A DNA stretch of 34,305 nt, from assembly GCA_947177795.1 (NCBI GenBank), contig CAMWVR010000015.1, positions 1 through 34,305 on the forward strand, in the 5' to 3' direction. The position numbers and the translations under genes are program-made. Below the pieces are notes generated by a model. It was not told the DNA's origin and ran no database searches. It saw only the letters and a program-made list of their open reading frames with translations. This document shows positions 1-20,009 of the stretch, one piece after another (within the stretch, counting starts at the first letter, position 1; every line of letters starts with the position of its first letter). The DNA is from an uncultured Clostridia bacterium. GTDB lineage: Bacteria; Bacillota; Clostridia; Christensenellales; UBA3700.

Positions 1-540
1 GGATATATTAGGAAAATAAAATAAATATTTGCTACATGTCGTAATTAGAGTTGGTTCCTCTCACTTTATATCCAACTCCTTTGCGCGCCACCGAAAGGTG
101 GCGCGTAGAGTTAGAGAAAATGCTATCAAAGGAACTTGCCGACGGCAAGATATTAAAGCGATAAGACAAAAGCAAAAACAATGGCACAAGGAGAAAGTAA
201 ACGCCTAGGGTAAATAACTTTGGTCATATTGTTAATATCAAGTCGTTGGCAAGTGTAAAAAAATAAAGGAAAGCAAGTTTAAGATCAAAAAGTTGAAATA
301 ATTCTAAATTTGCGCTTTTAGATCGAAAAATGTATCTGATGTTAAGTAAAGTTGACAACATGTAAACTGAAGTTACTTGTAATTATGTAAGTTATGCCTT
401 AAAATAAGAACGTAAGCAACGAAAGCGTTGCGATACAAAATTCAAAGTAGGCTAAAATAAATTGATGATATACCGATCTGCATAGTGACGTATATCATAG
501 ACACCGAAGAGCGCGTTGCCGTAAGGCGGCGCGCTTTTCT
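1..540 (+). ncRNA. candidate large structured non-coding RNA (5' end uncertain)
   Basis: No plausible protein is encoded here, but compact helices follow one another on the plus strand. They are 48-54/72-78 (GAGTTGG/CCAACTC), 84-92/97-105 (nine perfect pairs closed by a GAAA tetraloop), 135-140/144-149 (CTTGCC/GGCAAG), 344-378 (AAGTAA/TTACTT with inner AGTT/AACT), 416-421/426-431 (GCAACG/CGTTGC) and 465-473/490-498 (ATGATATAC/GTATATCAT). The series ends in an intrinsic terminator at 511-538. A second GGCAAG at 248-253 could compete for 135-140. Length and ornate hairpins recall the large bacterial RNA classes (ROOL, GOLLD, OLE), but I cannot match a family by eye. No convincing promoter is visible, so the 5' end may lie upstream of the window. 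Bases 185-203 are exactly complementary to the small RNA at 19909-19984. Confidence 0.55.
511..538 (+). terminator. intrinsic terminator of the 5' non-coding RNA
   Basis: A ten-pair stem, 511-520 with 525-534 (two G-U pairs), closed by a GTAA tetraloop, is followed by TTTT. No coding sequence precedes it, so it must end a non-coding transcript. Confidence 0.8.
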
Positions 541-593
541 ATTGACAATATTATCGATTGAATCGACGGATATTTTTGGCCGTTGAAATGCGC

Positions 594-14917: not shown

Positions 14918-17900
14918 ATGAGAAATAAAATCAACGTGATTGTCTGCATAATGATAGTGGCGTGCGTGGCAATTTTTGCAGTTGCGTGCGTACCCAAAGA
15001 CGCGGACGGATTGATTAAACTCGCTTCGCCAAGCAATTTAAATCTCAACGGAAGCGTGCTGAGTTGGGACGAAGTGGAAAATGCAAATGAGTATTTTATT
15101 TCCGTTGACGGAGTGGAGAATGAGCGCAGCGTGACTACCACGACTTGCGATCTGAGCGCAATGGTCACAGGATACGGCAATTTTTCCATTACGGTGAGAG
15201 CTTACGGCGACGGCAAGAAGTACGGCACCAGTGACAAAAGTCAGGCTATAGTATATCATAAGGGCAACGCCTTGGATACGCCTGTCATAACGATCGCCGA
15301 CAAAGTTGCGTCTTGGAACGCAGTCGATCAGGCGGTGGAATATTCCGTCAGAGTTACCGACGGTAAGGGCGCTTTGCTTGACGAACTCACAAGCGACGCT
15401 TTGTCTTATGATTTCACGAAGAAAAAAGTCGGAGAGAATGAAGAAGAGAAGGACATCTACGGCGATTACGGAGCTTATAGGATCAGCGTCATAGCAAAAC
15501 CTGCGTCAGACAATATCGAGTATTCTCCTTCTTTGGCAGGCGTGGCAACGTATTATAATTCGACGGTTCTATCGGTTCCGAAATTCACCGATATGACGGG
15601 CTCTACGATAAGGTGGGGAGCAATAACCAACGCCACTAACTATACTTTGAGAAAGACCTATGAGGACGGCACTTACGAAGATGCAGTCGTCACGGGCACG
15701 AGCTACGCATATCGCACTAAGTTCAATTTGGAAAAAGTAGGCGAGTATACCTTTACGATCAGAGCCAACGGCGACAATCAAGTATACTACACCAGCGAAT
15801 TCAGCGAGAAGGACGACGAATACGTCGTCAACAAGCTTGCTGCCGTAGATCCTCAAGATATCTCGCTGACTTACGATGCAAAAGGCAGCGCAAAACTCTC
15901 TTGGAAATTGGCTGCAGATTCTCTTGCGACTGAATTTACGCTCAACTTGAGCGCATTGTTGCCCGACGGCAGCGTCAAGTTGGAGAGCAGTATTTTGCAA
16001 CAGACTATTTCCAACAAGATAGTATTCGTCGTAGCAGACGTATACGATTTCTATAAGTACGACGCAGACGGCGAGGGACTCATAAAGGAAGATGGAACTA
16101 CAATTCTCGTATATAATATGAACGGATTTGCAAAAGTTCGTTACGACGGTAAAGATTATTTCCTCAAGGATAAAGACGGAAATGACGTGATGTGGAAGAA
16201 TTATACTCCAAGCGCAAGCGTCGATGTCATTTGCGATATGAGCGATCCCGACAATATCAAGTTTGTCAACGAGCGCAAGGAGTACACCAATCCCGACAAC
16301 GGAGCTATTTTGAGCCAAAATACGGGCGAAGACCAAGACGTGCTTGATGACGGAAAACAGCTTTTCTATTATGAAAAAGTCGACGGCGAGACGGAGATCG
16401 AAGTCAAACAGGACGTTGAGTACGATGCCGACGGCGTAACCGTCAAGTATCATACTTTTGAGATTATGCTCGACGATATATTCATCAAGAAGACCACCGA
16501 AGAGGGCGAGAGTAAATACGATTATTTGATAAGCGACAACGCTTATTACGGATTGCTTTACGACGTGTCTATATCGGCAGATAACACTTCCAAAAATTAC
16601 GTGGTAAGTCAAAGCACTGCGACGAGCGGACAGTATATGAGCTATAAGATACCCGAAATGGCAGACGGCAGATACGTCGTGACCAACACGGGCGAGTACG
16701 CTTATATCATATTGAATTCCTTTATCAATCCCGATAATACCGATGAGTTCTCCATAGAGGAAAATATCAACTTCAACGGATACGAAGTGGCGCAGATAGA
16801 GACGTTCAGCGGAGTTATCGACGGCAACAAGCACACTGTTTCGGGCATCGTCATCGGCAACAAAGTTATGACTCAAAATGGCGTGGTAAAGAATGATAGC
16901 GTAAGCGACCTCGAGTATTCTATGTTCGTCAATATAGACTCCAAGGGCAATAGTAAGAAAGGTATAATAGAGAATATATTCTACGTGGGCGTAAGCTTTG
17001 TGGGATATGACAAAGAAGACCTTGACGAGAACGTCAAGTCTATCAAGGTCGCTCCGATTGCTATCAATAACAAAGGCACGATCCGCGACTCTCTCGTTCA
17101 GAGCGATTCTATCAAGGCGGAGGGAGCTCAAGTTGCAGGCTTGGTAATCAACAATTACGCATATATCGGCGCAGTTTCCGTATACGCAGAGCTCGAGGGT
17201 ATGACCGTCGGCGGCTTTATGATCAACAACGAACGAGAGACTATCATTTCGTCAATCGGTTTTTACGGCAAAGTCACGGCTACGCTTTCCGACGTTTTGA
17301 CTGACGGAATAACTAGCATCGGCGGAGCGGGAATCGTCGTCAACAATAAAGGCAATATCTTGGATAGCTTTGCTATAGGAGACGTAAGCGTAACGGCGGC
17401 GGGTCTTGACAGCGTTTACGCAGGCGGTTTCGTCGCTGTCAACGACGGCGATATCAAGCAGTCTTACAGCGGAGAATTTACGCTCAACAATGCAGGAATT
17501 ACAGAAGTCGTCGCCAACGGCAACAATGCATACGCAGGCGGTTTTGTCGGTCTTAACAGAGGCGACGTAGCTTCGTGCTATTCGACCAATAAGGCTACGG
17601 CAAGTATGTACTCGGGCGGTTTCGTAGGTTTCAACGGAGCAAACGTAACGAGTTGTTACTCCACGGGCGGTACGACTCGCACCGGCGAAAATAACGGCTC
17701 TTTCGTGGGCAAGAACGACGGCGCAGTCGTCAAGAGCGTATGTTATTCTACGGACAGTTGGGCAAAAGACGACGCTGTCGAGGTGTTTAAGTCAAGCGAA
17801 AAACTCGGCGACTTCATTGATATACTTTACGACGGAGAAGAAGAGGTGGATATGGTTCTTATGAGAGAACAGGGATATCGCAATCCTTTGCTCAAAAGAG

Positions 17901-18260: not shown

Positions 18261-19823
18261 ATGAACGATCAGGAAAGACTTGAAAAGTACGTGTCTATCG
18301 TGCCGAGTGTAAATCAAAAACATTTTCAACGCCAAAGGTTTAACGTATTTTTCCACTATGGAACTAATACTTTTACTGCAAAAGAATGGGGAGACGGCAA
18401 GGCAGACCCGCAAATTTTCAATCCTACGGAGCAAGACACCGACCAATGGTTGAGGGCTGTCAAAGAAGCCGGAGCATACGGAGTCATACTCACGTGTAAG
18501 CATCACGACGGATTTTGCCTTTGGCCGACCAAGACGACGGATTACAGCGTGGCTAGCTCGCCTTATAAAGACGGCAAGGGCGACGTAGTCAAAGAAGTGT
18601 CGGACAGTTGCAGAAAATACGGAATAAAGTTTGGTATCTATCTGTCGCCGTGGGACAGAAATCACGAGGCGTACGGAACGGAAGGATACAACGACGTGTA
18701 CTGTGGTCAGCTTGAAGAGCTTTTGACGGGATACGGCGAGATCTTCTGCGTATGGCTTGACGGAGCTTGCGGTTCTTATATGGACGGAAAGCCCAAGCAA
18801 GTTTACGATTGGGATAGATACTTTGCGACGATTCGCAGGCTTGCTCCCAATGCGTGCATTTCCAATTGCGGACCCGACGTACGCTGGGTGGGCAACGAAG
18901 GCGGTTTTGCCAGAGAAAGCGAATGGAACGTCGTGCCTAAATTTGCGTTTGATATCCAGTCTATCGAGGCGACGTCTCAGCAGAGCGATGACGGCGATTT
19001 TGCAAAAAAAGAAGCGGATATAATATCTCCCGATTTGGGCAGCAGGGAATTTTTGAAAGACTTCAATAGTTTTATTTGGTATCCTGCGGAGGTCGACGTG
19101 TCTATACGCCCAGGTTGGTTTTATCACAAGTCGCAAGATAAAGCCGTACGCAGTCTCAAAAATCTTTTGAAAATATATTATAATTCCGTCGGCGGCAATT
19201 CGACATTGCTTCTCAACGTGCCGCCTGATCGCCGAGGATTGCTTCACGAAAACGACGTCAAAAGACTTAAAGAACTCGGAAAGCATATCCAAGAGAGCGA
19301 CGCTCAACTTCTGAAGGTCAAGGCTATATCGGCTCCCGTCGCGGAAGAAGGATTTGATATCGAGGGGGTACTCGAGTATTCTTATGACGAGAGTACTTTT
19401 GATCCGATAAATTATTATACGCCCAAAGAAGAGCGTGGATCTTATGAGATTGAGCTCGTCTTAGATCAACCCGCAAAGATCAACAGATTGCAGTTGGTGG
19501 AAAACGTGGCTTTTTCTCAGCGAATAGAGAATTTTGAAATATACGCTTTTGTCAAAGGCAAATACAAAAAGGTATATGACGGAACTACGGTGGGCTATTG
19601 CAGGATTGCTACGTTCAAAGCTGTGACGACGGATAAGGTCAAAGTCGTGTTAACAAGCGTACGCAAAAAGCCTTATATAGAGTTCATAGGCGTCTATGCC
19701 GACAACGGCGTGCTTATCAAAGACACTTTGCGCCAAAAGTTTGTCAAATGGTTGCATCACGTCAATTATATAGCTTATATTAAACGAGAAAATAAGAAGA
19801 ATAAGAAGGGTGACGGGCAATAA
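18261..19823 (+). CDS. GH29 alpha-L-fucosidase
   Basis: This 520-residue enzyme has the GH29 catalytic barrel: FNVFFHYGTNTFTAKEWG (27-44), CKHHDGFCLWPT (79-90), YLSPWDRN and nucleophile D167 in IFCVWLDGACG. A C-terminal beta-sandwich (about 390-480) resembles a discoidin-type carbohydrate-binding module, and the last residues are Lys/Asn-rich. No signal peptide is present, so it should act on imported fucosylated oligosaccharides. The short active-site region suits the GH29-B type (branched alpha-1,3/1,4 linkages), but this is not certain. GGAGG lies five bases before the ATG. It stands alone between two terminated units. Confidence 0.92.
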   Translation: MNDQERLEKYVSIVPSVNQKHFQRQRFNVFFHYGTNTFTAKEWGDGKADPQIFNPTEQDTDQWLRAVKEAGAYGVILTCKHHDGFCLWPTKTTDYSVASSPYKDGKGDVVKEVSDSCRKYGIKFGIYLSPWDRNHEAYGTEGYNDVYCGQLEELLTGYGEIFCVWLDGACGSYMDGKPKQVYDWDRYFATIRRLAPNACISNCGPDVRWVGNEGGFARESEWNVVPKFAFDIQSIEATSQQSDDGDFAKKEADIISPDLGSREFLKDFNSFIWYPAEVDVSIRPGWFYHKSQDKAVRSLKNLLKIYYNSVGGNSTLLLNVPPDRRGLLHENDVKRLKELGKHIQESDAQLLKVKAISAPVAEEGFDIEGVLEYSYDESTFDPINYYTPKEERGSYEIELVLDQPAKINRLQLVENVAFSQRIENFEIYAFVKGKYKKVYDGTTVGYCRIATFKAVTTDKVKVVLTSVRKKPYIEFIGVYADNGVLIKDTLRQKFVKWLHHVNYIAYIKRENKKNKKGDGQ

Positions 19824-19873
19824 ACGTTGATTATTTTAATCAAAAATATAGATAAATTTGACATAAATTGCTA

Positions 19874-19902
19874 TTGACAATAGCTTTTCTATCGATTATA
19901 AT
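19874..19902 (+). promoter_or_regulatory. perfect-consensus promoter of a small RNA
   Basis: TTGACA (19874-19879), 17 bases, TATAAT (19897-19902). This is one of the two strictly consensus promoters I see in the window (the other drives tRNA-Arg). The predicted start is G19909. Confidence 0.85.
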
Positions 19903-19908
19903 ATAAGT

Positions 19909-19984
19909 GTAAATGTTTAGTAGTGTAAAAACGTTTACTTTCTCCTTGTGTAGGATACGGACTGAAGACAGTCCGTATCTTTTT
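19909..19984 (+). ncRNA. candidate trans-acting small RNA (~76 nt)
   Basis: The unit has a consensus promoter, no ORF and three parts. A 5' hairpin of ten pairs (19909-19918 with 19929-19938) comes first. Next is an unpaired CU-rich stretch TTCTCCTTGTGTAG (19940-19953). An intrinsic terminator follows (19954-19963 with 19970-19979, then TTTTT). The layout is that of a bacterial regulatory RNA with an exposed seed. Bases 19932-19950 are the exact reverse complement of 185-203 in the large non-coding RNA; twelve of these bases are in the exposed or junction region and seven lie in the hairpin arm. The seed also contains CTCCTT, an anti-Shine-Dalgarno sequence, so mRNA leaders are alternative targets. 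Confidence 0.7.
19954..19984 (+). terminator. terminator of the small RNA
   Basis: GATACGGACT and AGTCCGTATC are perfect ten-base arms around GAAGAC, followed by TTTTT. Confidence 0.88.
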
Positions 19985-20009
19985 ATTATTTAAAATAGTC
20001 TGCAATCTG

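What the first reader, a model, noticed from the sequence alone, without database searches (positions are those of the whole stretch)
185..203. Nineteen-base perfect complementarity between the large RNA and a distant small RNA
CACAAGGAGAAAGTAAACG at 185-203 is the exact reverse complement of 19932-19950 in the candidate small RNA. In 34 kb a chance 19-base complement between two given loci is very unlikely (roughly a few in a thousand for the whole window, somewhat more with skewed composition). Both loci are non-coding, expressed-looking and terminated. The target lies between the two alternative partners of CTTGCC in the large RNA, so pairing could switch its fold or assembly. I know of no described small RNA that acts on such a large structured RNA.
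Basis: partly seen in the sequence, partly recalled or inferred. Interest (0 to 1): 0.82.

Follow-up and report, generated by a model that had tools for sequence, protein, structure and literature searches.

The report
Small RNA matching a pseudogene hairpin
A conserved 75-base regulatory RNA of an uncultured Clostridia bacterium is perfectly complementary over 19 bases to a hairpin loop in the decayed remnant of a transporter gene; the match is real and unlikely to be pure chance, but it is unique to this species and the 'large RNA' it was thought to switch is a gene-deletion scar.

Summary
The 19-base match is real: it is the longest exact reverse-complement pair in the window and occurs only at these two places in the genome. 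About 1% of shuffled windows give one as long.

The small RNA (19909 to about 19985) is solid. It has a perfect promoter, a 5' hairpin, an exposed UUUCUCCUUGUGU anti-Shine-Dalgarno segment and a terminator, conserved in four species of the genus.

The 'large RNA' is not an ornate RNA class. Two relatives carry two or three tandem ABC-transporter genes between its ends, and bases 134-254 are a frameshifted piece of that gene. Relatives keep only 11 matching bases (14 with G-U) inside the intact genes, so the perfect match is species-specific.

The piece nevertheless folds into a strong hairpin with the target in its open loop, and the hairpin survived divergence with three compensatory pairs. 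The predicted fold does not change when the target is occupied, so the 'switch' idea fails.

I hold two readings about equally likely: an inherited pairing site, now at most a decoy, or coincidence between a pyrimidine-rich seed and a purine-rich linker. A better-supported partner is a 3' untranslated region elsewhere in the genome, pairing over 25 bases here and 19 in one relative.

The parts
19874..19902 (+). sRNA promoter TTGACA-N17-TATAAT
   Evidence: 12 of 12 consensus match; both hexamers kept in G001, G008 and G012
19909..19985 (+). small RNA gene (start inferred from the promoter, end from the terminator)
   Evidence: Fold z -5.1; covariance model finds it in G000, G001, G008, G012 with E 1e-17 to 1e-19, one copy each (these four built the model)
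19909..19938 (+). sRNA 5' hairpin (10 bp, 10-nt loop); most of it can pair with a 3'UTR elsewhere in the genome
   Evidence: (100% of cells paired in 4 species)
19939..19951 (+). exposed anti-Shine-Dalgarno segment UUUCUCCUUGUGU (putative seed)
   Evidence: Unpaired in the minimum-energy and centroid folds; invariant in four species
19952..19981 (+). intrinsic terminator of the sRNA
   Evidence: 13-bp stem followed by a T tract
185..203 (+). 19-nt perfect complement of sRNA bases 19932-19950
   Evidence: 85% unpaired
134..254 (+). hairpin carrying the target in its 17-nt apical loop; decayed, frameshifted piece of an ABC-transporter coding sequence (linker between ATPase and permease domains)
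   Evidence: Blast to ABC genes of G001/G008 over 132-222; reading-frame remnants ELADG... and SDKTKAKTMAQGE; z -6.88; analogous hairpin in ABC genes and 3 compensatory pairs
13..119 (+). leader with two hairpins, conserved upstream of the tandem ABC genes in relatives
   Evidence: hairpin fold z -7.2
324..542 (+). 3' block conserved in G001, G003, G008: 19-bp direct repeat remnant (about 341-374), promoter-like TTGTAA-N17-TAAAAT (377-405), short structured RNA (about 412-542) and terminator hairpin (about 508-537); probably a separate transcription unit

Best explanation
The segment 19909-19985 encodes a trans-acting small RNA whose exposed, invariant UUUCUCCUUGUGU segment imitates an anti-Shine-Dalgarno sequence. 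Its ordinary job is probably to pair with purine-rich sites, such as ribosome-binding sites, of several mRNAs. Bases 134-254 are what is left of a tandem ABC-transporter gene after the array was deleted. In relatives the intact genes carry at the same place a hairpin whose loop region (GCGCAAGGAGAAAG) can already pair with the sRNA over 14 positions. In this species the loop pairs over 19. I think the site is an inherited pairing site, and that if the scar is transcribed it binds the sRNA and acts as a decoy (sponge) rather than being switched by it. Shown: the match, sRNA conservation, ABC origin, predicted hairpin and accessibility. Inferred: transcription of the scar, binding in the cell, any effect on sRNA level or targets.
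For: sRNA conserved with promoter, hairpin, invariant seed and terminator in four species. Exact 19-nt match covers that seed and is unique in the genome. The target lies in the loop of a hairpin with z -6.9, unpaired probability 0.85. The hairpin is more stable than 99.7% of randomly mutated copies of the G001 gene segment with the same number of changes, and has three compensatory pairs on a sequence-only alignment. Predicted net pairing energy -14.5 kcal/mol, beyond the best of 800 random sites (-13.0), against -8.9 to -5.7 for the ABC sites. The CACAAGGAGAAAG-like site in ABC genes was found only in genomes that have the sRNA (G001, G008, remnant in G000); ABC genes of G003, where no sRNA was found, lack the site. 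Known precedent for such sponges in Firmicutes.
Against: The perfect match exists in one species only. The scar is a broken gene whose transcription is not shown; its start lies at the contig end, so no complete promoter is visible. ABC linkers in this genus are generally purine-rich: G005, without a confident sRNA homologue, also has AAGGAGAAAGAG there. Hairpin arms can be perfected by replication template switching without selection (PMC8794818). The hairpin is absent from the ABC genes of G003, G013 and G014. G012 has the sRNA but no close ABC gene.
Confidence: 0.42

Rival explanations
1. Coincidence with a head start: an anti-Shine-Dalgarno sRNA is pyrimidine-rich and the charged linker of the ABC proteins (K/E/G/R codons) is purine-rich, so 10-14 matching positions arise by composition; drift in the dead copy happened to extend this to 19. 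The two loci have no functional link.
For: Only 11 Watson-Crick pairs in relatives. Apart from the ABC sites, genome counts of near-matches to the 13-mer core are close to the reversed-pattern controls. Purine-rich linkers also in species without a confident sRNA homologue. Shuffled windows reach 19 or more in 1% of cases, and the finding was picked as the best of many possible pairs.
Against: The match covers the invariant exposed segment of a real sRNA (rough expectation 1e-5 per genome before the head start), lies in an accessible loop, and the hairpin around it is retained after loss of the reading frame.
Confidence: 0.42
2. In G001 and G008 the sRNA represses the ABC operon through the coding-sequence hairpin, and the G000 site is a dead former target that has not yet decayed.
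For: Same loop in all five intact gene copies, 14 positions with G-U; analogous hairpin.
Against: Net pairing energies -8.9 to -5.7 are within the best few percent of random sites, not beyond them. Coding-region conservation alone would keep the core.
Confidence: 0.09
3. The sRNA is a switch of the fold or assembly of a large structured RNA.
For: Two possible partners for CTTGCC lie on either side of the target.
Against: The long-range helix has probability 0.999 with or without the target occupied. The RNA is a gene-deletion scar, not present as such in relatives, and matches no Rfam family.
Confidence: 0.04
4. 185-203 is the ribosome-binding site of a short reading frame in the scar and the sRNA represses its translation.
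For: AAGGAG is a textbook Shine-Dalgarno sequence.
Against: No ATG/GTG/TTG at the usual spacing behind it; next bases are AAAGTAAACGCCTAGGGTAAATAAC; it derives from codons for AQGE.
Confidence: 0.03

Closest known systems
RosA, sponge of RoxS/FsrA in Bacillus subtilis (PMC8216469)
   Same: Purine (G)-rich single-stranded region of a longer noncoding RNA pairs with the pyrimidine-rich, ribosome-site-like segment of a small RNA of a Firmicute
   Different: RosA is conserved and experimentally shown; here the site is species-specific, gene-derived and untested
SprY titrating RNAIII in Staphylococcus aureus (PMC9266662)
   Same: A small RNA pairs with a roughly 500-nt structured RNA
   Different: SprY is the sponge and RNAIII the regulator; here the long RNA would be the sponge and is a deletion scar
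Rfam ncr982 (RF02454), Bacillus sRNA between fosB and lexA, found with Hfq (PMC3574147)
   Same: Size, 5' hairpin, exposed UUUUUCCUCCUU-like segment and terminator; 32.4 bits
   Different: Below the gathering score of 50; other neighbours; similarity is largely of architecture
C-rich anti-Shine-Dalgarno sRNAs RoxS, FsrA, CsfG
   Same: Works-like resemblance: short Firmicute sRNA with unpaired pyrimidine-rich ribosome-site mimic
   Different: No Rfam match to those families was returned; the segment is UUUCUCCUUGUGU, not a run of C

Membership tests
Trans-acting anti-Shine-Dalgarno sRNA of Firmicutes | own promoter and intrinsic terminator | tested here: met
   Sequence consensus and conservation
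Trans-acting anti-Shine-Dalgarno sRNA of Firmicutes | unpaired, conserved segment complementary to Shine-Dalgarno sequences | tested here: met
Trans-acting anti-Shine-Dalgarno sRNA of Firmicutes | conserved target at a ribosome-binding site | tested here: inconclusive
   TACAAGGAGAAG before the DUF378 gene in all four sRNA-bearing species; not compared with species lacking the sRNA
Trans-acting anti-Shine-Dalgarno sRNA of Firmicutes | expression and regulation of targets | not testable with these tools
   No transcript data
ncr982 (RF02454) | score above gathering threshold | tested here: not met
   32.4 bits against 50
RNA sponge (RosA/SprY kind) | accessible extended complementarity to the sRNA seed | tested here: met
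   (accessibility is predicted)
RNA sponge (RosA/SprY kind) | conserved pairing in relatives | tested here: not met
   11 bp (14 with G-U) inside coding genes only
RNA sponge (RosA/SprY kind) | lowers free sRNA or relieves its targets | not testable with these tools
   Needs experiment
Large ornate noncoding RNA classes (ROOL, GOLLD, OLE and the like) | match to a family covariance model | tested here: not met
   No hit at gathering threshold; only a chance-level hit at relaxed threshold
Large ornate noncoding RNA classes (ROOL, GOLLD, OLE and the like) | one continuous conserved structured RNA | tested here: not met
   Relatives have two or three ABC genes in the middle

The most novel reading that the evidence does not exclude
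A coding-sequence hairpin in tandem transporter genes is a pairing site for a small RNA; after the genes were deleted the hairpin was kept and its loop was improved to a perfect 19-nt match, turning a pseudogene scar into a dedicated sponge for the sRNA.
Probability: 0.15. Interest if true: 0.72.

Novelty: new member of a known kind. Interest (0 to 1): 0.42.

Why it matters
If the pairing works, it would show how a bacterial RNA sponge can be born: from a target gene whose coding part was deleted but whose pairing hairpin stayed. It would also give a first sRNA network for an uncultured Clostridia genus. If not, it is a clean example of how anti-Shine-Dalgarno sRNAs collect long chance matches in purine-rich linkers.

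Tried and rejected
Known RNA family: no Rfam family at threshold for either locus; tmRNA not found by ARAGORN. Dispersed repeat: only two genomic copies. Phage origin: no match of 1-600 in phage records; the 18-mer is in two viral contigs whose neighbouring reading frames were listed but not followed. Ribosome-binding site in the scar: no start codon at usable spacing. Direct ABC fragment plus unrelated 3' arm: rejected after alignment suggested that the 3' arm continues the ABC homology with paired changes. The strong G008 contig-31 match (TGACAAGGAGAAAGTAAAATG) looked like a ribosome site, but the frame behind it is only 5 codons, so it was dropped. A distant sRNA hit in G005 (E 0.003) shows only a terminator-like match by eye. 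The first alignments A1 and A3 used wrong strand or coordinates for some rows and were redone (A2, A4).

Full report
Observation. The 19-base complement between 185-203 and 19932-19950 is exact. It is the longest distal reverse-complement match in the window and is present at just these two places in the 1.89-Mb genome. Four of 400 dinucleotide shuffles produced a match of 19 or more, while nine natural 34-kb composites from relatives gave 15-16. So any-pair chance is about 1%. For the sRNA segment itself the expectation is far lower: near-matches with up to 3 mismatches occur about 0.25-0.5 times per genome, in the pattern and in its reversed control, and an exact match is about 28,000 times rarer. 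That last figure is my scaling and ignores compositional enrichment.

The small RNA. A perfect TTGACA-N17-TATAAT lies at 19874-19902 and an intrinsic terminator at 19952-19981. The predicted RNA of about 75 nt folds with z -5.1 into a 10-bp 5' hairpin, a free UUUCUCCUUGUGU and the terminator stem. Homologues occur in G001, G008 and G012, with the promoter hexamers kept, an invariant CUUUCUCCUUGUGU and all pairs kept. Each lies about 110 bases behind a reading frame of the alpha-L-fucosidase family. No convincing homologue was found in other genera of the family. Contig lengths tie G001, G008 and G012 to 'Clostridia bacterium' MAG records JAIDRT010000011.1, JAIDUV010000027.1 and CAMWQA010000004.1.

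The 'large RNA'. The window is a whole contig, so base 1 is an assembly end. DNA search shows that 13-119, 132-222 and 324-542 match relatives in three separate pieces. In G001 and G008 two and three tandem genes for about 1000-residue ABC ATPase-FtsX permeases lie between the outer pieces. The middle piece lies inside those genes at the linker behind the ATPase domain. The window keeps ELADGK... and SDKTKAKTMAQGE in different frames with stops. The genome still holds a 46%-identical ABC gene on contig 51 but no close copy. G003 carries what looks like an independent scar at the same locus, made of other ABC fragments. The 3' block has repeat motifs, its own promoter-like site and a terminator, and is probably a separate unit. 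None of it matches Rfam.

The hairpin. Bases 130-256 fold with z -6.88, with ACAAGGAGAAAGUAAAC as the apical loop. The ABC genes of G001 and G008 fold into an analogous hairpin with GCAAGGAGAAAG in the loop region. On a sequence-only alignment with 47 substitutions, three inner pairs changed on both sides and stayed paired. The window copy is more stable than all but 0.3% of 3000 randomly mutated copies of the G001 sequence. This suggests constraint on the hairpin, but template switching between hairpin arms can produce the same pattern without selection (PMC8794818). ABC genes of G003, G013 and G014 lack the hairpin and loop.

Pairing. Predicted net energy for the sRNA with the window loop is -14.5 kcal/mol, against -13.0 for the best of 800 random sites and -8.9 to -5.7 for the ABC gene sites. 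Contiguous pairs: 19 (20 with G-U) in the window, 11 (14 with G-U) in G001 and G008. The target is 85% unpaired. The 135-140/248-253 helix keeps probability 0.999 whether or not the target is bound, so the proposed fold switch is not supported.

Other partners. A 3'UTR on contig 20 of the same genome is complementary over 25 bases to the sRNA 5' hairpin. The orthologous 3'UTR of G001 pairs over 19 with its own sRNA and that of G008 over 11. Random 70-base stretches never exceeded 11 in 4000 trials. The ribosome-binding site of a DUF378 gene keeps TACAAGGAGAAG in all four sRNA-bearing species. These support an RNA-pairing role for the sRNA more firmly than the window match does.

Judgement. The sRNA is very probably real and the complement is real. 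The large-RNA reading is wrong, and so is the claim of no precedent: RosA sponges RoxS and FsrA, and SprY titrates RNAIII. Whether the 19-mer works is open. I put an inherited pairing site acting as a decoy and a composition-aided coincidence at about equal odds, and commit to the former because of the hairpin and the exact match to the seed.

Noticed in passing
L031:1500-1545 (G000 contig 20, about 15338-15368): 3'UTR of a 131-residue gene of no Pfam family is perfectly complementary over 25 bases to the 5' hairpin of the sRNA (19913-19937); orthologues in G001 and G008 keep 19 and 11 pairs just before the terminator. A stronger candidate sponge or target than the finding itself.
   Followed up: partly
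window 412-542: Conserved structured RNA of about 130 nt with promoter-like site and terminator, in G000, G001, G003 and G008; in relatives it precedes an undecaprenyl-diphosphate-synthase-like gene. Possible leader or independent sRNA without Rfam match.
   Followed up: partly
window 341-374; L007, L008, L014, L015, L019, L024: Direct repeats of ATGTAAACTAAAGTTGACA in tandem upstream of many unrelated genes across the genus; the last TTGACA often looks like a -35 box. Probably an operator of a genus-wide regulator.
   Followed up: partly
L035:1419-10619 and L033:1473-7646: Tandem ABC ATPase-FtsX genes with nearly identical first ~880 bases (about 95-98% between copies in one genome) and divergent permease parts, as if homogenised by gene conversion; the array is lost, apparently independently, in G000 and G003.
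   Followed up: partly
L078:1500-1520; L205, L206, L207: Ribosome-binding site of a DUF378 membrane protein gene carries TACAAGGAGAAG in all four sRNA-bearing species: a candidate canonical target.
   Followed up: partly
window 18261-19985 and relatives L122, L123, L124: The sRNA always sits about 110 bases behind an alpha-L-fucosidase-family gene, while its downstream neighbour varies (MarR-MATE or a recombinase).
   Followed up: yes
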